Shown here piece by piece: positions 1-19,240 of a DNA stretch of 64,000 nt. Both the position numbers and the translations under genes were made by a program. Positions within the stretch are counted from its first letter, which is position 1. Every line of letters starts with the position of its first letter. The DNA is from Bradyrhizobium diazoefficiens (lineage in GTDB: Bacteria > Pseudomonadota > Alphaproteobacteria > Rhizobiales > Xanthobacteraceae): assembly GCF_016616885.1 (NCBI RefSeq), contig NZ_CP067102.1:1454501-1518500 (forward strand). Reading direction: 5' to 3'. Below the pieces are notes generated by a model. The model ran no database searches and had not been told where the DNA came from. It saw only the letters and a list, made by a program, of their open reading frames with translations.

Positions 1-967
1 TCGGGTCGACCGGCGCATCTCCTCGAAAAGGATGTGTGGGTAGTGTGGGCCCTCGCCGCGCTCTACGGATCGGCGCTCGGCGAGCATCTGGTGTTCAAGG
101 GGGGCACTTCACTATCGAAGGCCTATGGCGTCATCCGACGGTTTTCCGATGACGTCGACCTGACCTACGACATTCGGGCGATTGCACCGGATCTGGTGGG
201 CGATAACGGTGAGGCATTGCCCAAGACGCGTAGCGAAGAGAAGCGCTGGTCGAGCGAGGTCCGCAAGCGCCTGCCGGAGTGGGTAGCCGGGACAGCGCAG
301 CCGGTCATTGCGGACGCGTTGGCTGCGGAGGCGTTGGCCGCCACGATCCGTCTCGAGGGCGAGAAGTTGTTCATCGACTATGAGGCGATTGCGACGGGCT
401 CCGACTACGTGGCGCCGAGCGTGATGCTTGGGTTCGGCGCACGATCGACGGGTGAGCCGGCAAGTCTGCGGGACATCACCTGCGACGCATCGGGCTTGGT
501 TGAAGGCGTGGTCTTCCCAACGGCCCGGCCCCGCGCGATGCGTGCCGAGCGAACCTTCTGGGAAAAGGCCACGGCGATCCACGTCTTCTGTCTGCAGGAG
601 CGGCTTCGTGGCGATCGTTTCGCACGACATTGGCACGATGTCGTGCGGCTGGATGAAGCCGGCCTTGCGAAAATAGCTTTCGCTGATCGCGACCTGGCGA
701 ACGCCGTGGCGCGCCAAAAAACCATGTTTTTCGCCGAGAAGGCGTCCGATCGAACATCCATCGATTACGCAGCGGCGGTGGACGGCGGCCTGCGGCTTGT
801 GCCCGCTGGGGATGGCCTGAAGGCGCTGGAAGGAGATTACGCATGGTCGAAGATGGACTATTCTTGGGGATGCCGAATCTTTCGCGGCGCTCATGCAGCG
901 TTGCGCGGACATTGCCGCTCGAGCAAACAGCGTATCCAAGGAATTCGATCAGGCGTCGCCAAAATAA
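1..967 (+). pseudogene. AbiEii-type nucleotidyltransferase toxin, 5' cut by window edge, 3' frameshifted
   Basis: The reading frame is open from base 1, so the true start lies outside the window. The nucleotidyltransferase signature GGTSLSK followed by FSDDVDL is present near the N-terminus, typical of AbiEii/AbiGii toxins, which are usually paired with an AbiEi antitoxin (it would lie upstream, unseen). The last part is broken. After GDYA (about base 842) the family-like continuation MVEDGLFLG is in a second frame, and from about base 872 the continuation DAESFAALMQRCADIAA is in a third frame, ending at a TAA at 965-967. Two small indels therefore separate the catalytic core from its C-terminus; the open frame instead runs to 1020 with an unnatural tail. 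The catalytic core could still be made. Family call is sound; loss of function is inferred. Confidence 0.7.
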
Positions 968-985
968 AAAAGGCCCGGGGGGGTG

Positions 986-1144
986 ATGATAAAACGTCTA
1001 ACACGAGTAGCGCGGCTTGAGATTGTCATAAAAGAGGAATGTGGACGGCAGGGCCTGCTCGCCGACTTTGTGCGGGTCATCGACGTTCTGCCTCATCAGA
1101 ACAGTCACTGTGAGCGAACGTATCGCCTGGCTGGTCTAGCATGA
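986..1144 (+). CDS. Possible 52-residue leader protein of the FAD/SMC operon
   Basis: An ATG at 986 opens 52 codons that stop at a TGA overlapping the ATG of the next gene (ATGA). The product is basic and contains a helix-like segment ending LADFVRVIDVLPHQ. A G-rich stretch directly upstream could act as a ribosome site. The downstream flavoprotein gene has no clear Shine-Dalgarno of its own, so coupling from this ORF would explain its translation. I recognise no family. It may be a real small component or only a translational leader. Confidence 0.4.
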   Translation: MIKRLTRVARLEIVIKEECGRQGLLADFVRVIDVLPHQNSHCERTYRLAGLA

Positions 1145-3516
1145 CGGGCGTCGTTTTGCCTTTCGATGATTGGCTTCTGATAGCGGGAAACTCCACTGAC
1201 AGTGGACTTCATTTCGTCGGTGCGTTTGATCGACGGATCACATTTTATTCGCAGCAGGTTCGTGCGCTGCGGCTTGCCCACGCCCTAAGTCGTCCCGGCA
1301 AGTTGAAGCCAACTGATAACATCGCTGTGGTCGGCGCGGGGGCTGCGGGCGTTACGGCTGCCCTCGGACTGGCGTTACTCGGTAACGATGTGAGCCTATA
1401 CGACCCCGCCGCATCGATCTTGCAGCTACAGAGCGCATCACCGCGCCTGCTGCATCCTCATATCTACGAGTGGCCCAGGTTGGGATCGCTGGATGATCGC
1501 TCGGGTTTACCAGTCTTGGATTGGTCTGCGAATCACGGCGGCGCCGTTTGCACTCAGCTCAAGGCAGACTTTCACGCTGCGGAGACGCGCCTGCCGAATC
1601 TCACCTTCAAACCGGGCCAGAAATTAACATCCCTCGATAGAGTCGGCACGCGGTGGCGGCTTGGGCTCACAACGAATGGTACTCCCAGCTTTCGTCAATT
1701 TGACCACGTTGTGCTCGCGATCGGCTTCGGCGACGAGATCCCCTGTGGGGCGGCGATCCCTGTGCACTATTGGAAACAGAATTCCACGGGGTCGGCCGCC
1801 GCCGAACCGCACAGTCCAGCGACCTATCTTGTCAGCGGCAATGGCGATGGCGGGCTCACGGACCTACTAAACCTGCTGATTCAGGATTTCGATCATGTCA
1901 GATTTACGCGAAGCTTTTTGGACTATTTTTCTGATGACGCTCTTCGCGTCACGACTGAAACCGCCTGCGCTGGTGTAACGGCTGGCGACGATCTCGAAGC
2001 GGCGTTCAATACCAATCTTTTACCCCTGTTTGACGAACTGGGCGTGCTCGATCGACTCAGTCAGCACCTTCGATCCGACCGAAAGGTCACCATCAACAGC
2101 TCCGGCCCGTTATTTGCTGCGACAAAGGCAGCGCAGCTCAACCAAGTTATGGTCTTTGCGGTTCTTGAGGCGGCGAAGCAGGTCGCGCGCCCGGTCCGGC
2201 GAAGTTCGGGCCAGATCACGGACGTCGTCCTAGGCACTGGGGGCTTCCAAGTCGCCGGTCCGAGTGTCGCGGGGGGGCCGCTGACGGAGACGCTGGAACA
2301 TGTCATCCTACGGCACGGCCCTGACCGTGCGCTTCGCTATGCGCCCGCCGGGGCATATTTCACAGCGTATCGGGCGCATGCGACTGCTTTATTTGCAGCG
2401 AGGCCCGATCTCAACGCGCCGCCTATCCTCGATCGCGAGACCTACGACTTCTTTGAAAAGCTTCGAATTGAGAAGCTCGAAGATCATGCGTCACAGCAAG
2501 CGTCCCGGGCCAGTGTCGCCAGCGCGAGAGCTACGATTGTCCTGGAGATTGATCCGGCCGGTCATGTTCCAGTCGAGCGTGGCAGCCGGCGCCTTTTGAA
2601 CATTGCCGACAGCTGCGAGCGGCTGACCGGAAATGTCATTCTCCACCTCGCTATGCCTCCTGCGAAAATAGCCGGATCGGCGAACCTCATTCGCCTGGCG
2701 CGTGCCAGTGGTGGTCGTATCGCACTCGCCGCCGGGCCTGATGGCCTATCTGACTGGCAGAAGCTTGTGCCGACGATCAATGCAGTGCCGGTTGCGATCT
2801 CATATTATCCCGCACTCGCGCTGAATATGACCGGATTGGACGAGGCGATCGACGCCTGTTTGCTCCGCCTCCTCGATCAGCGGGTCCGAATAGCGCTGGC
2901 GAGTTATCATTGCGACGCACTTGGTCCGCTCAACCCATCGATCGCCAGCGCTATCGAACCAACTTGGACGGCATGGCATGCCTCGCTGAAGAGCGACAAA
3001 ACGCTGCTTAGCGCCTTTCTCCGTTGGCTAGCCAATGTTGAACAGTACGAGCGTTCACCGTGGGACGGTGATCACGCAAGCGTTCCGCATCTTGCGACGG
3101 CAGTTGTGATGATGCTGGCGACGCATCATGGCGAACCGCTGGAGCCCGCATTTGTTGACCGAGGAAATCTGAAATTTAGCAAGAATGCGGTGGCGCTGGG
3201 ATCGGGGTGTCAGATGATCGGCCAGCAACTAATCGCGGTCTGGAATCAACCCGACCAGTGGGGTGTCGATGCGCTGATTCTATCGGGCTCGGCAGAAGTT
3301 GAAGTCCTGGATCCACCGGGCCGCATACTCGATGGCGGCAAGCCCGCCATGGGAATGGCGGCGGCGAGACGGGTGCGCCCCGTAGTGATCCGGAACGATA
3401 AACAGTGGCGTGCACGCCTGATCGGCGATCTGGCTGGCTGGAAAGCCGCGGTGGAAGCAGAATTTTCCGCCTTGCGTGTGCGGCAGGACAAGGAACTGGA
3501 GGAGCTTCCCAAATGA
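1141..3516 (+). CDS. FAD/NAD(P)-binding protein, first large component of an ABC-3C-like operon
   Basis: Protein of 791 residues. Residues 61-90 form a classical dinucleotide-binding Rossmann unit, GAGAAG (65-70) with acidic D88 at the end of strand 2, and a second motif (VVLAIGFGD, about 190-198) matches the ATG motif of flavin oxidoreductases. There is no signal peptide. The C-terminal 350 residues have no family I can name. The gene overlaps its neighbours by 4 bases at both ends (ATGA), so it is co-translated with the small ORF upstream and the middle gene and SMC ATPase downstream. In ABC-three-component systems the first gene is an effector and the ATPase comes last; here the effector position is held by a predicted flavoenzyme, which could consume NAD(P)H or oxidise a target. 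The enzyme activity is inference. Confidence 0.7.
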   Translation: MTGVVLPFDDWLLIAGNSTDSGLHFVGAFDRRITFYSQQVRALRLAHALSRPGKLKPTDNIAVVGAGAAGVTAALGLALLGNDVSLYDPAASILQLQSASPRLLHPHIYEWPRLGSLDDRSGLPVLDWSANHGGAVCTQLKADFHAAETRLPNLTFKPGQKLTSLDRVGTRWRLGLTTNGTPSFRQFDHVVLAIGFGDEIPCGAAIPVHYWKQNSTGSAAAEPHSPATYLVSGNGDGGLTDLLNLLIQDFDHVRFTRSFLDYFSDDALRVTTETACAGVTAGDDLEAAFNTNLLPLFDELGVLDRLSQHLRSDRKVTINSSGPLFAATKAAQLNQVMVFAVLEAAKQVARPVRRSSGQITDVVLGTGGFQVAGPSVAGGPLTETLEHVILRHGPDRALRYAPAGAYFTAYRAHATALFAARPDLNAPPILDRETYDFFEKLRIEKLEDHASQQASRASVASARATIVLEIDPAGHVPVERGSRRLLNIADSCERLTGNVILHLAMPPAKIAGSANLIRLARASGGRIALAAGPDGLSDWQKLVPTINAVPVAISYYPALALNMTGLDEAIDACLLRLLDQRVRIALASYHCDALGPLNPSIASAIEPTWTAWHASLKSDKTLLSAFLRWLANVEQYERSPWDGDHASVPHLATAVVMMLATHHGEPLEPAFVDRGNLKFSKNAVALGSGCQMIGQQLIAVWNQPDQWGVDALILSGSAEVEVLDPPGRILDGGKPAMGMAAARRVRPVVIRNDKQWRARLIGDLAGWKAAVEAEFSALRVRQDKELEELPK

Positions 3517-4160
3517 CTCCCAAAATCCTTAGTGACAAGCTCATGCAGTCGGCAAAGTCGCTTGGATGGCCGTCGACGGTTGAGCCAGACTTTACATCTG
3601 CAACGTTCAGGGGCCGCCAGGATGCATCTGCCACGTCGCTGCCAGAAGCCACAATCGGCCTACGCCTTGGTGCATATCCCGTTCTGGTCGCACCGATCGC
3701 GTTAAACACCAGCGAGCAAATGCAAGGTTCGCTTCGACCCCTGCACAACCAGATGGTGATCGCCCGGTCTTACATGCGCGCTGAAGAGGTGATCAACGCG
3801 CACATCATGCTTTGCGTGACTGCGACGGACTCCCAAGCTGACTGGCGTGGCATTATTGATCTTGCCGAAAGGGACGAGACGGTGTGCCGGAAAGTGGTCT
3901 GGATGCCAGACACCGACGAGTTAGACGAATCGTACGATCTATTTCTTGCGCGAACATTTCTCGCTCAGCCATGGCGATCGCTCCAAGCTGTCCTCAACGC
4001 GCCGCTCGACCATAACCAGGGACTCGCCGAGCGAATTCTCGTTAGGCACGGGTTGCCGGAGCCAGCGGCGAAGCGGTGGGTCGTACTTGCTGAGACTTAT
4101 AAGGATGACCCTGACGGATTGATCCCGCAGTTGGTCGTTGCCCGGGAGCAGCCCGAATGA
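3513..4160 (+). CDS. Small middle component between flavoprotein and SMC ATPase
   Basis: The ATG at 3513 overlaps the flavoprotein stop and the gene's own stop overlaps the SMC start, giving 215 residues. A longer reading from 3405 lies wholly inside the upstream gene and is unlikely. The sequence is soluble with an alpha/beta core (segments such as YPVLVAPIAL, NAHIMLCVTAT and CRKVVWMPD) and no membrane segment. Size and position fit the 'middle component' of ABC-3C systems, thought to link effector and ATPase. WMPDTDEL and FLARTFLAQPW resemble phrases in small partners of SMC-like ATPases, but I claim no exact family. Function is inferred from context. Confidence 0.6.
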   Translation: MTPKILSDKLMQSAKSLGWPSTVEPDFTSATFRGRQDASATSLPEATIGLRLGAYPVLVAPIALNTSEQMQGSLRPLHNQMVIARSYMRAEEVINAHIMLCVTATDSQADWRGIIDLAERDETVCRKVVWMPDTDELDESYDLFLARTFLAQPWRSLQAVLNAPLDHNQGLAERILVRHGLPEPAAKRWVVLAETYKDDPDGLIPQLVVAREQPE

Positions 4161-7100
4161 CACCGCTCTATCTGAAGCACGTAGAACTTCGACAATTCAG
4201 AAGTTTCGCGACGCTCGATGTTGAACTCCCGGCGCAGCCTGGTGTGCTTATAGTCCATGGCAGCAACGGGCTGGGCAAGTCCTCTCTTTTCGATGCACTT
4301 GAATGGGCGCTGTCTGACCAAATCGACCACTTCCGAGATGCAAACGGCGTCAATAAGCCTGGCACGTATTTGTGCCGCTGGCGGGAAGGTGAGCCGGGGC
4401 CGACCAGCGCCACGATGATTTTTTCGGATGACAGCACAATCGAGCGAAGCCTGTTGTCCGCTAAATCGATTAAGTCGCAACTTCGAGGCAACGTCCCTGA
4501 TATCACTGGCTTCCTGCGTGCGCCGGCATGGCAGCAGCGCATTTCGGAACTACAGCGCTATCTTTTGCTGACCCACTTCCTGGGGCAGTCGACCCTCTCG
4601 CGTTTGACTTACCGAAAGTCTACTGAGCGGTTCGATATTCTTAAGGAAGCTGCTCAGAGCACGGCTATTGAGGCAATTGCCAACGCTCTCCATGGCCAGG
4701 GTAACACCACGGTCGTTCGCGCCTACGCCCGGCAAATCGAAACCTTTGAGCGACATGCCAAGAGTTTGGGCGACCTTCTAGAGCAGGAGGCTTCGCTATG
4801 GACAGAAGCGCAGATTTCGGGCTCGATCGACGAGGCCAACGCCGATTCCGAGGCTCGCCGGATTGCAGAGCAGTTATCGCGTGCGCAGCTCAACAATCAG
4901 AAAACCACTGACACGCCGGCTGGTGAAGCTGAGCTCACGATCGAACGTCTGCAGGCGACGGCAGACAGTATTGAGCGCGAATGTCTTTCCGCCGAGTCTC
5001 AATTGGGGGACGCGCGACGTCTCCACAGCGAGCGGCAGCGCGTCCTAACGGACGTGGCCGAAGTGGGAGCGTCGCGCACCGCTACACAGGCGCGCCTGGA
5101 CGCGCTCGCTGGCGAGCTCGAGCGGGCAGAGAAGGTCAAGGATGATCGCCGCAGGCTGGTTGCGGCCCATCAGGAGGAGGTCGCTGGCGCGTCGACGGCC
5201 CTTTCGCGCCTACGCACGTTGCGTGACGCGCGCGTTTTGCTCGCTAGACTGGTGGCAGAAGATCAAGAGGGCGCCGTTGCGAGGGTGGCTGCCGACCAGG
5301 CAAAGAACGAAGCGGAGCGCGATGTCACGCTGGCCGAGCGCAGGCGACAAATCTTGCAGTGGCTAAACGGTGAAATCGGCCAATGCGATGAGGAGATCGA
5401 CCGCCTGCGTGGCAGCGTAGCGACGGTCGATCAGGCGATCGCGTGTGAGGCTCGCATTCGGGACCAATCGGACGGGCTTGCTCGCCTCGAAGCCGGCAAT
5501 CCAAACATAGATCAGGCCGTGGAACGTGGCGAAGAAATCGCAACGGCAGCCATCGACAGCGTGAGCGCTCAAACTGCGGTTGTCGAGAGCCTTCGGTACA
5601 CGTTCGACACTATGACTAACGCAATTGCATCGATCGCGACGCACTTGCCGGCCGATGCATGCGATTGCCCGCTTTGCGCGACCCCCTTTGACAGTGCGGA
5701 TTCCTTGCGGTCTCGGGTCTCGACCGCCGCACAGCGTCTCGCACCCGCCCTCGTCGCCCAGGAGGAAACGCTTAAGACCCTGTCGGTCGCTCGTGACGCC
5801 CGTGCAGCCGAACTCCAACAACTGCGAGGCGCACAGTCGGCGATTCGTTCAGCCCGTGCGGCGCTTGACGTTCAGCGAGAGCAGCGAGCCCGATTGCTCT
5901 CTCGCCTTGTTGATCGTTCTAGCGATGGACCCGCCGATCTCACCGCGAGACGAACGCGCTTGCTTGACGCAGTCGCCGCCATAACCGCGAGGCGCCAGCG
6001 AATGGCCCGTTGGCAAACGCACTCGGCTCTCGGCGGCCAGGCATCGAACGTAGAACACACGCGCGCGATCCGCGCGCGCGACGCAGCGCAACGGACGCTG
6101 GACGCCGCCACCCGCACGTCCGCAGATCTCGCCGCGGCTCTCGAAAGAGCGAAGGCGGATGAAGCTAACGCAATCTCTGCAGTGGACGTGGGTCGCGAAA
6201 TTAGTTCCAATGACCTTTCGCGAATGCTTCAGGAAGCGGAGGCCGCGTCACGTCGTGTTGAGGAGAGTGTCTCTGCTGCAACGCGGGCGCTAGCAGACGC
6301 CGACACGACTGTCGCTGCCCTCGAAGCGGAGCAGGCCGGTCTGAGGGCGCGACTGGTAGAAGTCGATTCCCGAAAGGCTGATCTTGATCGAAAGCAGCTG
6401 AGGATCGGTAACGACTGGCTTGCGCTGCAACGGTTCGGTTCGGTTCCGGATCTTGCACCCGTCCAGACTCTCGAGCGTCGCATTGCCGCTACGAGACTGG
6501 CGGTCAAGGAAGCGACAGCTCAACTTTCGCGGCTGCGTGAAGGGCGTCTCGCTTGGGCCCGACAGCTAAGCCATCGCGCTGTGCTCGAGCAAATCCGGGA
6601 GCAGGTTGATGGGCCGCCAAATGGGACACGCGACGAGTTGCTGACAAGTGCTACGTCGCTTCGTGCTCGCAAAACGGCGGACGCCGAGGCGGTGCGCCAA
6701 GTCAAAGAGATTACAAAGGCCGCGAGCGCTGACATCAGCGCCGAGCTGGAGGACTTCAATTCAGAATACATCAAGCCCTTGGGTTTCTTGATGTCGAGGA
6801 TTAATCAGGCGATCCTGTGTGATCCGCGCGTCGGGATTGATCTTCACGTCAAGAAAAAGAAGATTGAGCAGAGCGCCGTTAAAGGAAGTGAAGTCCCTAA
6901 GGCGGTCGGGGACATAGACCCTGTGCTCGTACACAGCGAAGGTCAAATGGCTGCTCTCGCGGTCAGTATGCTATGCGCCGCAAGCCTGACATTTCCCTGG
7001 TCGCGATGGAAGGCGCTCGTTCTGGACGACCCGTTGCAGCACAATGACTCGATTCATGCTGCGGCATTTGCAGACCTAATGGGCAATCTCGTTAGTGCCG

Positions 7101-7279
7101 AGGGCTATCAAATACTTCTTTCGACCCACGATGTCGCTCAAGCGGAATTTTTGCAGCGCAAGTTCCGTTCGCGCCGTATTCCTTGTACCACATTGAACTT
7201 GTTGGGACTCGGCAAGGACGGCGTTGAGTGGGCCGTCCAATCCTCTTCTTCGATAGAGCCTCGCGCAGCGTTGGCTTGA
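4157..7279 (+). CDS. SMC/Rad50-like AAA ATPase with coiled coil and zinc-hook-like CPLC
   Basis: Protein of 1040 residues. The N-terminal Walker A is GSNGLGKSS (35-43). Long Ala/Glu/Arg-rich coiled-coil arms follow, broken near the middle by CPLC (504-507), which resembles the CxxC hook of Rad50/SbcC. The C-terminal half-ATPase has a signature-like SEGQMAAL (about 926), Walker B ALVLDDP (about 953-959) and the H-loop LLSTHD (about 988). This is the layout of ATPases that clamp DNA or sense unusual DNA ends. It is coupled by ATGA overlap to the middle gene and followed after one base by a cupin gene. A chromosomal SMC role is unlikely given the operon partners; antiphage or antiplasmid surveillance is the inferred job. 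Confidence 0.8.
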   Translation: MTPLYLKHVELRQFRSFATLDVELPAQPGVLIVHGSNGLGKSSLFDALEWALSDQIDHFRDANGVNKPGTYLCRWREGEPGPTSATMIFSDDSTIERSLLSAKSIKSQLRGNVPDITGFLRAPAWQQRISELQRYLLLTHFLGQSTLSRLTYRKSTERFDILKEAAQSTAIEAIANALHGQGNTTVVRAYARQIETFERHAKSLGDLLEQEASLWTEAQISGSIDEANADSEARRIAEQLSRAQLNNQKTTDTPAGEAELTIERLQATADSIERECLSAESQLGDARRLHSERQRVLTDVAEVGASRTATQARLDALAGELERAEKVKDDRRRLVAAHQEEVAGASTALSRLRTLRDARVLLARLVAEDQEGAVARVAADQAKNEAERDVTLAERRRQILQWLNGEIGQCDEEIDRLRGSVATVDQAIACEARIRDQSDGLARLEAGNPNIDQAVERGEEIATAAIDSVSAQTAVVESLRYTFDTMTNAIASIATHLPADACDCPLCATPFDSADSLRSRVSTAAQRLAPALVAQEETLKTLSVARDARAAELQQLRGAQSAIRSARAALDVQREQRARLLSRLVDRSSDGPADLTARRTRLLDAVAAITARRQRMARWQTHSALGGQASNVEHTRAIRARDAAQRTLDAATRTSADLAAALERAKADEANAISAVDVGREISSNDLSRMLQEAEAASRRVEESVSAATRALADADTTVAALEAEQAGLRARLVEVDSRKADLDRKQLRIGNDWLALQRFGSVPDLAPVQTLERRIAATRLAVKEATAQLSRLREGRLAWARQLSHRAVLEQIREQVDGPPNGTRDELLTSATSLRARKTADAEAVRQVKEITKAASADISAELEDFNSEYIKPLGFLMSRINQAILCDPRVGIDLHVKKKKIEQSAVKGSEVPKAVGDIDPVLVHSEGQMAALAVSMLCAASLTFPWSRWKALVLDDPLQHNDSIHAAAFADLMGNLVSAEGYQILLSTHDVAQAEFLQRKFRSRRIPCTTLNLLGLGKDGVEWAVQSSSSIEPRAALA

Positions 7280-7280
7280 T

Positions 7281-7640
7281 ATGGCCGGAACAGCGGAGTG
7301 GAGATCTAATAGCGCCGTCGCTAGGCGTGCCGCGGAGCAAATGGCTATTCGGATCGACAGTCGCCGTCTGGGCGGCGGAGCTGCCGTGAGCATCATCGAG
7401 GCGCGTGTCCCGGTGAACAGTGGTCCACCAGCGCACTTCCACAAGGAGCGCGACGAATTATTCGAAATCCTTGAGGGCACGTTCCGTTTCCGCGTCGGTG
7501 ACGATCAATTCGATGCCCCTGCTGGCACGAGTGTCGTGATTCCCCGTGGCGTCGGCCACACTTGGGCCAACGTCGGTACAAACCAGGCGCGAATACTCTT
7601 GATCTTCACCCCCGGTGGAATGGAAGAGTTCTTCCCCTGA
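7281..7640 (+). CDS. Cupin-domain protein at the end of the ABC-3C-like operon
   Basis: 119 residues. Cupin motif 1 is visible around PPAHFHKERDELFEILEG (two His, Glu, and a later Gly) and motif 2 around GTSVVIPRGVGHTWANVG, so a beta-barrel metal site with the His/His/Glu/His set is probable. The ATG lies one base after the SMC stop, which suggests translational coupling and membership of the operon rather than a separate gene. Cupins bind small molecules or act as dioxygenases or isomerases; its part in a defence operon is unknown. It could bind a signal nucleotide or sugar, or simply be a neighbour carried along. Confidence 0.75.
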   Translation: MAGTAEWRSNSAVARRAAEQMAIRIDSRRLGGGAAVSIIEARVPVNSGPPAHFHKERDELFEILEGTFRFRVGDDQFDAPAGTSVVIPRGVGHTWANVGTNQARILLIFTPGGMEEFFP

Positions 7641-7886: not shown

Positions 7887-8522
7887 CTATTTCCGCTTGA
7901 TGTTTGGGCTGCTGGCTATTGGTTTTGCTTTGGGGACGAACTTCTCGCCTGTTGTGACGGTCAACTCCCCCTGCGTTGTCAGGTCTAAGGGATCGATGCC
8001 TGACGTTTTGAGCATGTCGTTCCAAACCTCAGTGAGGTCGTCGTAGGCGTTTGTAATCATTTCCGGTGTGCAGAGCTTCTGCCAATCGGCCGTCATGTCG
8101 ATCTCTTTGCCCTTTTGACCATCGGCCTTGTCGATGTAGGTTTTGCTCTTTTCGGTCTTTACCGGCTTGCCGTGAGCCAGCGTGTTGCGCAGGCGCTTCA
8201 TCGCAGAGACGGAGCTGTAAGGCCGCTTTCCCCAATCGGGAGAAATCTTCAGGTGCTGGAAAACCTTATCGATCTTCGTGTGGTAGTCGTCCCAATCATT
8301 CCAGAGAGGTAGTTTTTTAGCGCCGATGGCGTTGAGGTACGCCTCGAATGAGAACGCTAGCATCGTGCCCGCGGCCATGCAGGTAAACGTCAAGCCTGCC
8401 TCGTCGTTATCGGCGACCTTCTTCTTGATGATGTCTACAAACCATAGAGCGGCGTTGTCGATGTAATTGTGGATGTTGTGGTCGACGACTTGCTGGCTTG
8501 CTTTATGAAACTTCTCGTCCAT
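7887..8522 (-). CDS. HEPN-like protein with RNTLAH motif
   Basis: The start at 8522 (MDEKFHKASQQ) is preceded by a strong AGGAGG about 6 bases upstream; longer in-frame starts lack one. 211 residues, mainly helical. The segment KRLRNTLAHGKPV carries the R-N-x-x-x-H signature of HEPN RNases (catalytic Arg and His). An earlier helix with AAGTMLAFSFEAYLNAIG is typical of HEPN-like four-helix proteins that open with an aromatic/Glu pair. No clear partner nucleotidyltransferase lies next to it. Function as an RNase in an abortive-infection system is inferred from the motif; it may instead be a non-catalytic HEPN-fold protein. Confidence 0.6.
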   Translation of the reverse strand: MDEKFHKASQQVVDHNIHNYIDNAALWFVDIIKKKVADNDEAGLTFTCMAAGTMLAFSFEAYLNAIGAKKLPLWNDWDDYHTKIDKVFQHLKISPDWGKRPYSSVSAMKRLRNTLAHGKPVKTEKSKTYIDKADGQKGKEIDMTADWQKLCTPEMITNAYDDLTEVWNDMLKTSGIDPLDLTTQGELTVTTGEKFVPKAKPIASSPNIKRK

Positions 8523-8904
8523 TGGTTGCCTCCTTTGCCCCGCCGAGCCCTGTGGCCGTTTTGAGCGCGAAGCATACCGCACCTGATTCGAAAGGGCGTT
8601 GCGTTGCACGAAACGCAACTGAAGAGACACCGGTGAATGGAAGAGGTCTTCGGCATATTGCGAGCCCTGAGCTCTCAACCCGGCTTGCGACGCCGTACCG
8701 TTCGCTCGAATCGCTGAGGCGATAATAGTTAATCGATCTCAATCGCGCGGATCTAAGCACCTGATATCGCGCTAGAATATGGCGCGGAAACGATTAACAA
8801 CCTTCTCTTAGTCTAACGATCTTAGGTCTGGGTGCGTTGCGACCGTCAACTTCGGCACCGACGATACTCCAGGGGGTGCGTTGCTGCGGTTGACGGGCCG
8901 GGAC
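8523..8904. other. Intergenic stretch without a convincing gene
   Basis: About 380 bases between a leftward HEPN-like gene and a rightward small ORF, so it should hold two divergent promoters. Local GC is lower around 8720-8830. I see no strong repeat, RNA gene or coding signal. Confidence 0.4.
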
Positions 8905-9631: not shown

Positions 9632-10854
9632 CCTTCGTCCTTTGCTTTCGCCTCGGCTTCCTCGACGGCTTTTTTTATCGCCTGACCACGCGCCCAAGCA
9701 TCGCTAGCACGGCCTTGGCGCTTCGCACGATATTCGTCCGCCGTGTACATGATCGTTGAGAGCCCGACTTCGATGTGCCGTTGGTACTCGCCGGACTCAA
9801 AATGGTCGAGCCTGAAGTTTTCGTCTTTCGTGAGCCCCGTGTCAGGCCTTCTGGGAGCAAGCTTCAAGTTGAGGTAGGCCGTCAGGATCATCCGGTACAG
9901 CAACGCTGCAAACATATGAAGCGGCTGCTTGGTTGGAGGGACGATCAAACGCCCCTGCGACATCGCGTTGCCGTGTAGTGCGTCATTCCGCAGAAGATTG
10001 ATCTCGCCGAACAACCAAACTGGGAGGGTATACAACGCGCCGCTCTTGTCGCCATAAGCCTTGTAGCTCTTCGTGGAGCAAGCCGAGTTATTCCAACTGA
10101 TGCTGTTAAGCGCGGCATAGACGCCCTTGTAGGCTTCTTTTTTCGCCGGGTAGAGGATTTCGAACGCGCTGGCCCATAGCGCCACCGATCTCACGATGTC
10201 ATAGAGCTTCGCATCGGCGCCCGCAGGAAGCATTGCCGCCGCGTTCGCCATGTTAAGGGAACGGAACAGTCGCTCGTCCTCGATAGACGGGCTATCATTC
10301 GCGAAACACCGCTCCCAGCGTTTGAGGAGTTCGGCCATCAACAAGATATCGACGTCGCGCCGGTCGAGCTGGTGCGTCGCCAGTGCCGGCATCGTCTGAC
10401 CACGGAGGCGACGGACTTCATGGTAACCAAGCAGGGAAGGCGTCTGAGTCACTAGACCTTGGCCCTTGTTGTCTACCATCCATGGGTAAACGGCAAATGT
10501 GTCCGAATACATTGGTCCCTGGACGTGGCCGAACTGATGAACTTTGGCCCAGCTCAGGGGAATAACGGACATCGATATGAGGTCGCGAAATCCGGAGATG
10601 GCGCTGATCGTACGATAGGTGTCCGGCTTGTCCTTGCGCCAAATGATGGTGCTTGGCTGGACGGGATCGCCGAACTCAGTTTTGAATCTCTTCAGGAAGC
10701 TGCCCAACCGGGGCTGCTGCTTCTTGATGGCTGTGATGCGAAAGTCGTCCGGAGCGACCAGAGCGAAACCATCCACATCGATCGGGAATTTGACGTGAAC
10801 GTTCGGCAGGCTGAACATCGGTGCCCAAAGAGGCGGCTCTTTCGCCTTAGCCAT
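9628..10854 (-). CDS. Large hypothetical protein with RNDALH motif, coupled to a nuclease gene
   Basis: 408 residues if read from MAKAKEPP at 10854; an ATG two codons earlier (10860) is equally usable. Both starts lie upstream of the stop of the preceding gene (10847), so the two are translationally coupled. No N-terminal domain is recognised. Around residue 280, INLLRNDALHGNAM contains an R-N-x-x-x-H motif, as in Apea-like HEPN domains found at the C-end of defence proteins. The C-terminus is a charged Ala/Glu/Lys helix. Together with the upstream PD-(D/E)XK protein it looks like a two-gene nuclease/HEPN module. Function not known. Confidence 0.55.
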   Translation of the reverse strand: MAKAKEPPLWAPMFSLPNVHVKFPIDVDGFALVAPDDFRITAIKKQQPRLGSFLKRFKTEFGDPVQPSTIIWRKDKPDTYRTISAISGFRDLISMSVIPLSWAKVHQFGHVQGPMYSDTFAVYPWMVDNKGQGLVTQTPSLLGYHEVRRLRGQTMPALATHQLDRRDVDILLMAELLKRWERCFANDSPSIEDERLFRSLNMANAAAMLPAGADAKLYDIVRSVALWASAFEILYPAKKEAYKGVYAALNSISWNNSACSTKSYKAYGDKSGALYTLPVWLFGEINLLRNDALHGNAMSQGRLIVPPTKQPLHMFAALLYRMILTAYLNLKLAPRRPDTGLTKDENFRLDHFESGEYQRHIEVGLSTIMYTADEYRAKRQGRASDAWARGQAIKKAVEEAEAKAKDEG

Positions 10855-12223
10855 TGGCATCGTCCGGGTCGGGGACATTGAAGAGCATCAAGGTCAGCGC
10901 ATATTCCCGGTTGGGATCGTTCGCGTTATGGAAGACGTACCTAAACCGCGCGGGCCCTTGGACCAGCGGGCCGGACTTGTATTGCGGGTGCGCTCGAACC
11001 GCCTCCTGTGCCTTCCATATCACATCGCTGAAGCCCTTGTTGCGGTTGAAGATGACAAGTGCCGTCTTCGTGTCTCTCCAGGTCACGTATCGCTGGAGCT
11101 GGTCGACGGCGGCGGTGAAGGCCGTCACTCCCTCCCAAATTTTGCATTCGGCGATGAAGACGTTGGCACCGCCTTGCCGGATGATGATGTCCGACTTTCC
11201 CTCGCCATTGAAGGTCTCGCCGGTTGCTTCCCCCTCGTACTGCCCGTTGAGCTGTACCAGGAAGTGGAAGCGCAAGGCCTCTTCGCCCAGATCCGCGAAG
11301 GCTTTGGGGCTGTATTCCATGACCAGCGACATGTTCTGCATGACGGAGAGGACGTGTTGGTAGATTTCCTCGGCGAGATAGAATTGCTGCTCCGCGGGGA
11401 GCTGAAAATTGAAGGGCTCGGGTCTGATCTGCTTGCGGACCGGGTGGACGGTTAGGTCAGGAGCGTTCGGCCGTCGCTTGGGCTTGAACGTCAGGCCGGC
11501 CGAAATCTGTGCCGTGGACTTGAGCTGATTGATCCGTTGGTCGATTGCGTTAATGACCATACCCCGGAAGTTCATGGGCCAAGCGCTCAGGGATTCCGCT
11601 GAGCGTTTCAGATGCTCATCGATGTTGTCCAGGATGGCATCGAACGCCCGTTGAACACCCTCAAGGCTGTGGTTCTCTTTGGGCACATACAGGGTGACTT
11701 TGTTCTCGCCGATAAAGCCAAGCGGAGGTTTCAAACCTACCGCTGTCGGTTCAGTCCTCAAGTAGCGGGCGTCTCCGGTAAAGGGTACGTCGAGAGAAAA
11801 GATGGTCCCGCGGCGCTGATCCGTGAGCGTCTTGAAGTCGATGTTATGAAGCATCGCGAGGTACGGCGCGTAAAAAAATTCGAACTCCGCGTGTTCGGCT
11901 CCGTTGCGGTCCAGAACGGGCAGGTGGATGTAATGTTCGTTGTAAAGCGCTTGGACAATATCGTCGACGGGCTGTGCGGTCAGGGACGCGAGGGTCGCAC
12001 GTGATATCCGGTCGACAACCTTGCCAGTGATCCCGTGAGCTTCATCGATGATGCGCTGCCCGCGAAAAGCAGGACTGGATAGGGCGGCGGCATTGGAGAA
12101 ATGGCTCGCAGGTTGCAATGTCTGACAATAGCAGTAAAGCCGTGCGCGCAATAGTGGTGTGGCCAAACCACCGCCCGCAACCTTGAACGCCCGGCCGCTT
12201 ATTTTCCGGAGGATGTGGACCAA
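10847..12223 (-). CDS. PD-(D/E)XK nuclease-like protein
   Basis: The longest frame gives 458 residues from a TTG start at 12223; the true start may be later, since the first 45 residues look unlike the rest. The C-terminal third has the restriction-nuclease fold signature: an upstream Glu, then GKSDIIIRQGGANVFIAECKIW, giving D and E-x-K catalytic residues. The N-terminal half carries no named domain. It shares an operon by stop/start overlap with the RNDALH protein. It ends the island side next to a tRNA-Arg fragment at 12284. A DNA-cutting defence effector is a fair inference; the target is unknown. Confidence 0.6.
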   Translation of the reverse strand: MVHILRKISGRAFKVAGGGLATPLLRARLYCYCQTLQPASHFSNAAALSSPAFRGQRIIDEAHGITGKVVDRISRATLASLTAQPVDDIVQALYNEHYIHLPVLDRNGAEHAEFEFFYAPYLAMLHNIDFKTLTDQRRGTIFSLDVPFTGDARYLRTEPTAVGLKPPLGFIGENKVTLYVPKENHSLEGVQRAFDAILDNIDEHLKRSAESLSAWPMNFRGMVINAIDQRINQLKSTAQISAGLTFKPKRRPNAPDLTVHPVRKQIRPEPFNFQLPAEQQFYLAEEIYQHVLSVMQNMSLVMEYSPKAFADLGEEALRFHFLVQLNGQYEGEATGETFNGEGKSDIIIRQGGANVFIAECKIWEGVTAFTAAVDQLQRYVTWRDTKTALVIFNRNKGFSDVIWKAQEAVRAHPQYKSGPLVQGPARFRYVFHNANDPNREYALTLMLFNVPDPDDANG

Positions 12224-18115: not shown

Positions 18116-19240
18116 CTATTCCGCATCTTCCCAGTCAAATGACACGACATATCCATTCGGCCCAAGGTCGCTGATTGCGTATAGCTCCTCGGCCTTCCAC
18201 GCTCGTAAATCGTAAGGTTTTCCGTCTTGGTCGAAAAACACCAAATAGAAATAGTACGAGTCGCGTGCGTTTGCGGTGAGAGAGATCTTATGTTCGGTTT
18301 CGGACAGGAAAAAGCGATAGCCTGGAGCTGTCCGATTTTTTCCCGCTGACTTCACCTCGATAAAGCGCTCCTTGCCCGGTGCGGTGTACGACACAAAATC
18401 GTATCCGCACCCAAGCATATCGCGGCAATCCTTGATCAGCTTGATAAGTGCCTTGTGGTCCGCGCCTTCCAAGCGCTCCTTTTCCCACTTCAGCGCGAAA
18501 TCCTCGCTCAATTTTCCTATCTTGTTACGGTTCTCCAACATTTCATCGATGTTGATCCTTCGATGGTTCCTCTTATGAAGGGCGCTGACGTGCTTTTGCT
18601 CGTCGGGAGCGCGGATATAGGTGTTGTACAGAAACGTCATGAACTTGGGATTGCTCCAAGATTTCGTGATGCGGTTTTCCAGCTTCGCTTGCAGCAACAG
18701 ATGTTGTTGTTCACTGATAGCCGAATCCTCCGGGAGGCCGAGCGCCGTGCTCAGCGTTTCGATGTGCTCTTTGCTGCATACGTTTAGATACAGCTCCGGA
18801 AAATAGAGGCTCAGAATCTTTGCTTTGAAGTTCTGCGAAATCTCGATGTCGTCAATGTCGGAGAATCGCTGCGACCGCCCGGCGTCTATCAGGTCGAGGA
18901 GATTCATTTTGACGGCGGTGAATGCCTGCTCCTTGGAGCTGAATCGCTTGTGAAACCGGTACTTCATCGTTGTATCGGGCTTTGCCTTACCGAAATAGAT
19001 TCCGAATTTCATGGCGGTGGCGCCAAGGATATTGGCCCACGGCTTGGTCTTGGCTTCGACATAGGTACAGAACGACGGCGTTCCTTTACCCATGACGTAG
19101 CCGTCCAAGGTCAGGTTCTTGAGTCGGTCTATCGGAAACGCTCGCAGGAAGGCTCCTCGGCATTGAGCCGCCACATCCTCAAACGAACTGTCGAAACGCT
19201 GCGAAAACTCCTTGAGCTTTGCATCATAGGCAGGCGGCAT
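18116..19240 (-). CDS. DUF3883-domain protein, first gene of SIR2 operon
   Basis: 374 residues. The C-terminal 100 residues match DUF3883, a PD-(D/E)XK-like fold: GYDFVSYTAPGKERFIEVKSAGKN, then FFLSETEHK and YYFYLVF. The N-terminal part (about 40-90) has CTYVEAKTKPWANILGATAMKFGIYFG, a segment also seen in proteins that precede restriction-like ATPases. DUF3883 domains occur in many conflict systems, often fused to helicases. As first gene of the four-gene operon it may bind or cut DNA and signal to the SIR2 NADase. Start chosen at the only ATG in front of the conserved region. Confidence 0.65.
   Translation of the reverse strand: MPPAYDAKLKEFSQRFDSSFEDVAAQCRGAFLRAFPIDRLKNLTLDGYVMGKGTPSFCTYVEAKTKPWANILGATAMKFGIYFGKAKPDTTMKYRFHKRFSSKEQAFTAVKMNLLDLIDAGRSQRFSDIDDIEISQNFKAKILSLYFPELYLNVCSKEHIETLSTALGLPEDSAISEQQHLLLQAKLENRITKSWSNPKFMTFLYNTYIRAPDEQKHVSALHKRNHRRINIDEMLENRNKIGKLSEDFALKWEKERLEGADHKALIKLIKDCRDMLGCGYDFVSYTAPGKERFIEVKSAGKNRTAPGYRFFLSETEHKISLTANARDSYYFYLVFFDQDGKPYDLRAWKAEELYAISDLGPNGYVVSFDWEDAE

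What the first reader, a model, noticed from the sequence alone, without database searches (positions are those of the whole stretch)
986..7640. Overlapping operon: small ORF, flavoprotein, middle protein, SMC ATPase and cupin - candidate new ABC-3C-like system
Five genes overlap or nearly abut (ATGA, ATGA, ATGA, then one base). The ATPase has Walker A, coiled coil, a CPLC hook, signature and Walker B. The middle gene fits the ABC-three-component pattern (effector, middle component, ABC ATPase). The effector place is held by a 791-residue protein with a GAGAAG dinucleotide-binding fold and an unknown C-terminal half, and a cupin follows. I know of no described system with this set. A flavin-based effector would be a new way to harm the cell or the invader, for example by draining NAD(P)H when the SMC sensor fires.
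Basis: partly seen in the sequence, partly recalled or inferred. Interest (0 to 1): 0.85.

Follow-up and report, generated by a model that had tools for sequence, protein, structure and literature searches.

The report
Lamassu defence operon with flavoprotein effector
This is a member of the known Lamassu (ABC-three-component) family of bacterial defence systems in which the effector protein carries a flavoprotein domain that is predicted to burn the cell's NAD(P)H when the DNA sensor fires; the same domain is also found attached to quite different sensor proteins, so it is likely a portable immune weapon, and I found no experiment on it.

Summary
The genes are real, but the system is not new. 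The three core proteins match PADLOC's LmuA (711 bits), LmuC (228) and LmuB (851) and Pfam's ABC-3C domains CTD2 and MComp1. A review already lists a double-Rossmann dehydrogenase domain among Lamassu effectors (PMC10586767 section 9). LmuA, LmuC and LmuB occur, always in that order, in 36 of 52 loci. The cupin is a bystander (beside lmuB in 0 of the 35 of these loci with room to see it). The small ORF has an ATGA-coupled counterpart in 3 of 34 relatives. AlphaFold2 models residues 57-446 as a flavoprotein with two dinucleotide-binding domains. None of 32 aligned domains has CxxC or the FMO signature pattern. It therefore looks like an exchangeable effector, most likely an activated NAD(P)H oxidase (predicted). 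Verdict: a known kind of system with a little-studied, testable effector.

The parts
1141..3516 (+). LmuA: N-terminal flavoprotein effector half (about residues 1-450) plus CTD2 of ABC-3C systems (477-772)
   Evidence: PADLOC LmuA 711 bits, Pfam CTD2 168 bits; AlphaFold2 model pLDDT 88.3; fold matches for residues 57-446
1333..1350 (+). First dinucleotide (FAD) motif GAGAAG, residues 65-70
   Evidence: Both outer glycines and the middle one invariant in 32 aligned flavin domains
1834..1851 (+). Second dinucleotide motif SGNGDG, residues 232-237
   Evidence: G233, G235 and D236 invariant in 32 aligned flavin domains; NAD(P)H binding is inferred
3513..4160 (+). LmuC / ABC-3C middle component 1
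   Evidence: PADLOC LmuC 228 bits, Pfam MComp1 46 bits
4157..7279 (+). LmuB: SMC/Rad50-like ATPase with CPLC hook
   Evidence: PADLOC LmuB 851 bits; motifs
986..1144 (+). Small ATGA-coupled ORF before LmuA; at most a lineage-restricted coupling leader, not a general component
   Evidence: Counterpart in 3 of 34 relatives; 39% over 51 residues in L047
7281..7640 (+). Cupin_2 protein; neighbour, not part of the system
   Evidence: Pfam Cupin_2; not beside lmuB in relatives
1..1020 (+). AbiEii (its frame starts upstream of the window), neighbour; AbiEi lies just outside the window
   Evidence: Pfam AbiEii 114 bits; AbiEi-type hits for the gene before it; AbiEii upstream of LmuA also in L047 and L055

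Best explanation
The operon is a Lamassu (ABC-3C) defence system in which the SMC-like LmuB with LmuC is predicted to sense foreign or abnormal DNA and then would release LmuA, whose N-terminal flavoprotein domain likely oxidises NAD(P)H with oxygen and so would shut down the infected cell before the phage spreads. Shown by the calls: the identity of the three components, two nucleotide-binding glycine motifs, the conserved gene order, and reuse of the flavin domain on other sensors. Inferred from published work on Cap4-type Lamassu: release and tetramer formation of LmuA on activation. Inferred from fold and motifs only: FAD and NAD(P)H binding and the oxidase reaction itself. CTD2 is predicted to dock the effector to LmuB/LmuC.
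Against: No activity, cofactor or complex was tested. The fold matches are remote (11-15% identity) and span reductases, monooxygenases and N-hydroxylases, so they do not single out an oxidase. Release and tetramer formation are known for another effector class. The Walker B glutamate position is Asp here, unlike the E-to-Q change that PMC10586767 gives as general; what this means is unknown.
Confidence: 0.5

Rival explanations
1. The flavoprotein is a true monooxygenase that oxygenates a specific target (nucleotide, lipid, protein or small molecule) needed by the phage or the cell; NAD(P)H is used only as the coupled reductant.
For: FMO-like proteins and N-hydroxylases are among the best fold matches.
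Against: The FMO signature pattern FxGxxxHxxx[YFW] (recalled) is absent in 32 of 32 domains; no substrate is hinted at by conserved neighbours (neighbour list shows no shared gene).
Confidence: 0.28
2. The flavin domain is a redox or nucleotide sensor or a structural part, and harm is done by another partner or by LmuB/LmuC themselves.
For: CTD2 is uncharacterised and has no solved relative found.
Against: The N-terminal domain takes the place that nucleases, proteases and SIR2 take in other LmuA proteins (PMC10586767 section 9), and it is shared with proteins that lack LmuB/LmuC.
Confidence: 0.12
3. A new five-component system including the small ORF and the cupin, as first proposed.
For: Tight packing of all five frames; a 39% similar small ORF at the same place in L047.
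Against: Cupin not beside lmuB in the complete relatives, small-ORF counterpart in 3 of 34; the core trio is a named system.
Confidence: 0.03

Closest known systems
Lamassu type II / ABC-3C (DdmABC of V. cholerae; the Janthinobacterium agaricidamnosum system tested in PMC8565338)
   Same: LmuA-LmuC-LmuB composition, order and overlaps; CTD2 and MComp1 domains; SMC-like ATPase with hook
   Different: DdmABC carries a Cap4 nuclease on LmuA (PMC12409362 passage); here a flavoprotein. The effector class of the Janthinobacterium system was not given in the passages I read.
Lamassu with 'double-Rossmann dehydrogenase' effector (listed in PMC10586767; Lamassu-FMO in DefenseFinder, name recalled)
   Same: Very probably the same thing
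   Different: No experimental work on it was found in the held library
NACHT/STAND defence proteins (bacterial NLR-like)
   Same: Some carry this flavin domain at the N-terminus (L064/P0121)
   Different: The sensor is a NACHT domain in the same chain, not an SMC complex
YpdA / thioredoxin-reductase / FMO-like flavoproteins
   Same: Fold with two dinucleotide-binding domains
   Different: 11-15% identity; no CxxC and no FMO signature pattern

Membership tests
Lamassu type II / ABC-3C | LmuA effector with an ABC-3C C-terminal domain | tested here: met
   LmuA 711 bits, CTD2 168 bits, cut-off 25
Lamassu type II / ABC-3C | LmuC middle component | tested here: met
   LmuC 228 bits, MComp1 46.1 bits, cut-off 27.3
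Lamassu type II / ABC-3C | SMC/Rad50-like LmuB with Walker A, Walker B, signature; zinc hook in many | tested here: met
   LmuB 851 bits; motifs
Lamassu type II / ABC-3C | Three-gene operon with the small gene in the middle | tested here: met
Lamassu type II / ABC-3C | Phage or plasmid defence; ternary complex; LmuA release and tetramer | not testable with these tools
   Needs wet work
Flavin-containing monooxygenase (FMO) | Fold with FAD and NAD(P)H dinucleotide domains | tested here: met
Flavin-containing monooxygenase (FMO) | FxGxxxHxxx(Y/F/W) signature (recalled) | tested here: not met
   Absent in 32 of 32 domains
Thioredoxin-reductase-type disulfide reductase | Redox-active CxxC | tested here: not met
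   Absent in 32 of 32 domains

The most novel reading that the evidence does not exclude
A mobile flavoprotein cassette is a general bacterial immune effector that kills by redox (draining NADPH and making reactive oxygen), plugged in turn onto an SMC DNA sensor (Lamassu), NACHT and other P-loop sensors and a Roc-COR GTPase: a bacterial intracellular counterpart of the phagocyte oxidative burst, and a way to attack the nicotinamide pool other than NADase cleavage.
Probability: 0.35. Interest if true: 0.8.

Novelty: new member of a known kind. Interest (0 to 1): 0.42.

Why it matters
The system class is known, but I found no experiment on its flavin effector. Nicotinamide-targeting immune effectors such as SIR2 and TIR act on NAD+ by cleavage; a redox effector would attack the same pool differently. 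That one flavin domain was exchanged between an SMC-type and a NACHT-type sensor marks it as an effector and makes the question testable. It is also an annotation warning: the PADLOC LmuA model PDLC03858 matches NACHT and Roc-COR proteins through the effector half alone.

Tried and rejected
Cupin as a component: rejected. With 13 cupin seeds, two weak cupin-like ORFs (E 0.0016 and 0.0022) occur in 52 loci, both on the opposite strand; the one in L058 starts about 700 bases beyond lmuB, the one in L048 lies upstream of LmuA. Cupin homologues are found genome-wide in all 16 genomes searched, so distant cupins say nothing.

Small ORF as a general component: rejected.

The tally '188 of 197 genomes': rejected, because most matches are short generic Rossmann motifs (residues about 50-90 of the model) and the control rings in 9 of 14 genomes. 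I count 5 genomes with a full-length match and 7 matches of 120 bits or more to the flavin half.

Solved relatives by sequence: LmuA only six matches at E 0.11-0.8; LmuB generic SMC/Rad50 and a few others, none of the 38 rows named Lamassu; CTD2 and LmuC profiles none at E 0.1. Fold search with CTD2 alone (pLDDT 87.8): none at E 0.001 or better, best 0.05; I do not read this as a new fold. Viral library with the whole LmuA: 3 matches at E 0.001 or better, two labelled ribonucleotide reductase alpha subunit of Lactococcus phages and one unnamed; not used. Phage genomes: no match to LmuA at 1e-8. NCBIfam gives LmuA only sub-cut-off flavoprotein matches and no hit to LmuC.

Papers: searches showed no experimental study of a flavin Lamassu effector; these were listings, several cut (25 of 1,178; 20 of 37; 15 of 18; 15 of 24). 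The ABC-3C classification paper and two Lamassu structure papers are not held, so absence in print is not shown. Passages read without use for the argument: PMC10286901, PMC10865869, PMC7159879, PMC10952713, PMC11811056.

Full report
What is there. Family scans identify the three large ones: 1141-3516 is LmuA (PADLOC 711 bits over residues 7-788; Pfam CTD2 of ABC-3C systems at 477-772), 3513-4160 is LmuC / middle component 1, and 4157-7279 is LmuB. 7281-7640 is a Cupin_2 protein. The small ORF 986-1144 hits nothing at E <= 1. Upstream lies AbiEii, with an AbiEi-type gene just outside the window.

Where it is. The window lies at 1,454,501-1,518,500 of an 8.09-Mb single-contig genome. The genus is inferred to be Bradyrhizobium: a same-genus genome, G116, holds its copy on a contig of 28,576 bases, the length of the Bradyrhizobium sp. 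WSM3983 contig found. Other defence-type genes lie close by: a SIR2 protein of family PDC-S65 just upstream of the window (729 bits), PDC-S54 at 10847-12223 (376 bits) and PD-T4-1 at 18116-19240 (533 bits). I scanned only part of the window for such genes.

Do the genes travel together? A full-length match to this LmuA model is found in 5 of 197 genomes (the window's own, G070, G105, G116, G131); 7 further matches of 120 bits or more cover the flavin half only. A scan of one genome per species gave 49 loci. With three loci of the earlier search added, 36 of 52 have LmuA, LmuC and LmuB, in that order in all 36, split genes included. The 16 others are L056, L064, L069, L071, L072, L079, L083-L089 without L090, and L093-L095: contig ends, broken or missing frames, LmuC frames lost by my simple ORF picking (for G116 tblastn sees LmuC), and proteins with a different sensor. 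Counts are sequences, not independent events; some rows are near-copies. On plasmids, 14 of 72,556 records match and 8 cover at least 80% of the query; in the two that I opened the trio is annotated as ABC-three component system protein, middle component 1 and AAA family ATPase.

What is not part of it. Cupin: using 13 cupin seeds, no cupin-like ORF adjoins lmuB in the 36 complete loci; L050 ends 136 bases after lmuB and cannot tell; two weak opposite-strand matches (E about 0.002) lie elsewhere in L058 and L048. The same-genus relative G070 (LmuA 75%, LmuC 78%, LmuB 71% identical) has neither cupin nor AbiEii at these places. Small ORF: an ATGA-coupled frame recurs in L047 (39% identical over 51 residues, the only tblastn match), L055 (29 codons) and L048 (55 codons), the relatives whose LmuA C-terminal domain is 77-84% identical. 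The other 31 of 34 relatives lack it, and 6 of them have frames of 28-75 codons overlapping GTG or TTG candidate starts, which shows how easily such frames arise. At most it is a lineage-restricted coupling leader.

Portability of the effector. The flavin half is fused to NACHT/nSTAND1 (L064 of Methylobacterium gregans; P0121 is its match in the protein database), to LRR-Roc-COR (L083, a Verrucomicrobia MAG), to a protein with Pfam accessions PF13401, PF02985 and PF13646 (P0159; AAA and HEAT by recall of the accessions), and to proteins of 1500-1800 aa. Of ten such large proteins used, I checked five for a P-loop behind the flavin domain and all five have one; the one scanned with Pfam (L072) has no further family. 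The domain also stands in proteins of 438-720 aa with no other Pfam family. The NACHT-linked domain is 62% identical over 97% of its length to a CTD2-bearing protein (P0122). A quick maximum-likelihood tree of 50 domains places it within the CTD2 group as sister of P0124 (SH-aLRT 97) and separates P0143 from the other nine large proteins; 6 changes of sensor type are needed for 6 types, against a shuffled mean of 20.1. Limits: it is the quick method; four long branches (L030, L032, P0159, L083) make the deep order unsafe; 'Lamassu' in that tree means presence of CTD2 (or the operon for L022 and L024); direction cannot be read. I take the exchange as the best evidence that the domain is an effector.

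How it works, step by step. Sensing by LmuB/LmuC: inferred from the family (hairpins or DNA ends; PMC10586767 and PMC12904381, passages). Release and tetramer formation of LmuA: reported for Cap4-type Lamassu (PMC12409362 passage; PMC12799240 passages). Redox attack by the flavin domain: predicted. Docking by CTD2: predicted; no solved relative by sequence or by Foldseek at E 0.001 or better.

Known or new. Known kind. PMC10586767 (passages and section 9 read) places ABC-3C, DdmABC and the Lamassu types in one superfamily and lists a double-Rossmann dehydrogenase domain among LmuA effectors. PMC8565338 (passages) defines Lamassu type II by LmuC and shows phage protection for one such system from Janthinobacterium; its effector class was not given in the passages that I saw. 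NCBI names many homologues 'ABC-three component system protein' (225 hits from a capped candidate list, 120 shown). PMC12799240 (passages) describes interchangeable genes fused to core immunity genes in several systems, so modular exchange as such is known. Searches of the held library found no experimental study of the flavin effector, but key papers are not held. The DefenseFinder name Lamassu-FMO is recalled and comes from no call.

Verdict. The anatomy was read well, the claim of a new system is not supported, and the mechanism guess remains open and testable. The sensor exchange of the flavin module is the most interesting thing found.

Noticed in passing
L064:8650-12708, L083:6796-10266, L072:8950-14322: The LmuA flavin domain is fused to NACHT/nSTAND1, to LRR-Roc-COR, and to a 1790-aa protein with a P-loop; PADLOC's LmuA model matches all three through the effector half alone.
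   Followed up: partly
L026:6818-8935, L028:8007-10060, L029:6841-9070, L031:8086-10402: Proteins of 438-705 aa with the flavin domain; three of them (L028, L029, L031) have an adjoining gene of 221-263 aa without family hits: possible further one- or two-gene systems.
   Followed up: no
window 1-1020: AbiEii next to Lamassu also in L047 and L055, and a few genes upstream on a Rhizobium sp. ZX09 plasmid (L097). The last 57 residues of the window's AbiEii do not align with those of L047 and L055 although the DNA does for about 80 bases more, so the reading frames part near the end.
   Followed up: no
window 10847-12223 and 18116-19240; L033:9623-11893: Further defence-type genes: PDC-S54 (376 bits), PD-T4-1 (533 bits) and a SIR2 protein PDC-S65 (729 bits) just upstream of the window.
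   Followed up: no
L054:9001-17693; L081:8935-15276; L052:11927-15121: Broken copies: LmuA interrupted (L054), LmuA in two frames (L081), LmuB in two frames (L052).
   Followed up: no
window 7887-8534: Minus-strand protein with only weak HEPN-like matches (Pfam E 0.07-0.09; PADLOC CARF-HEPN model 0.0012).
   Followed up: no
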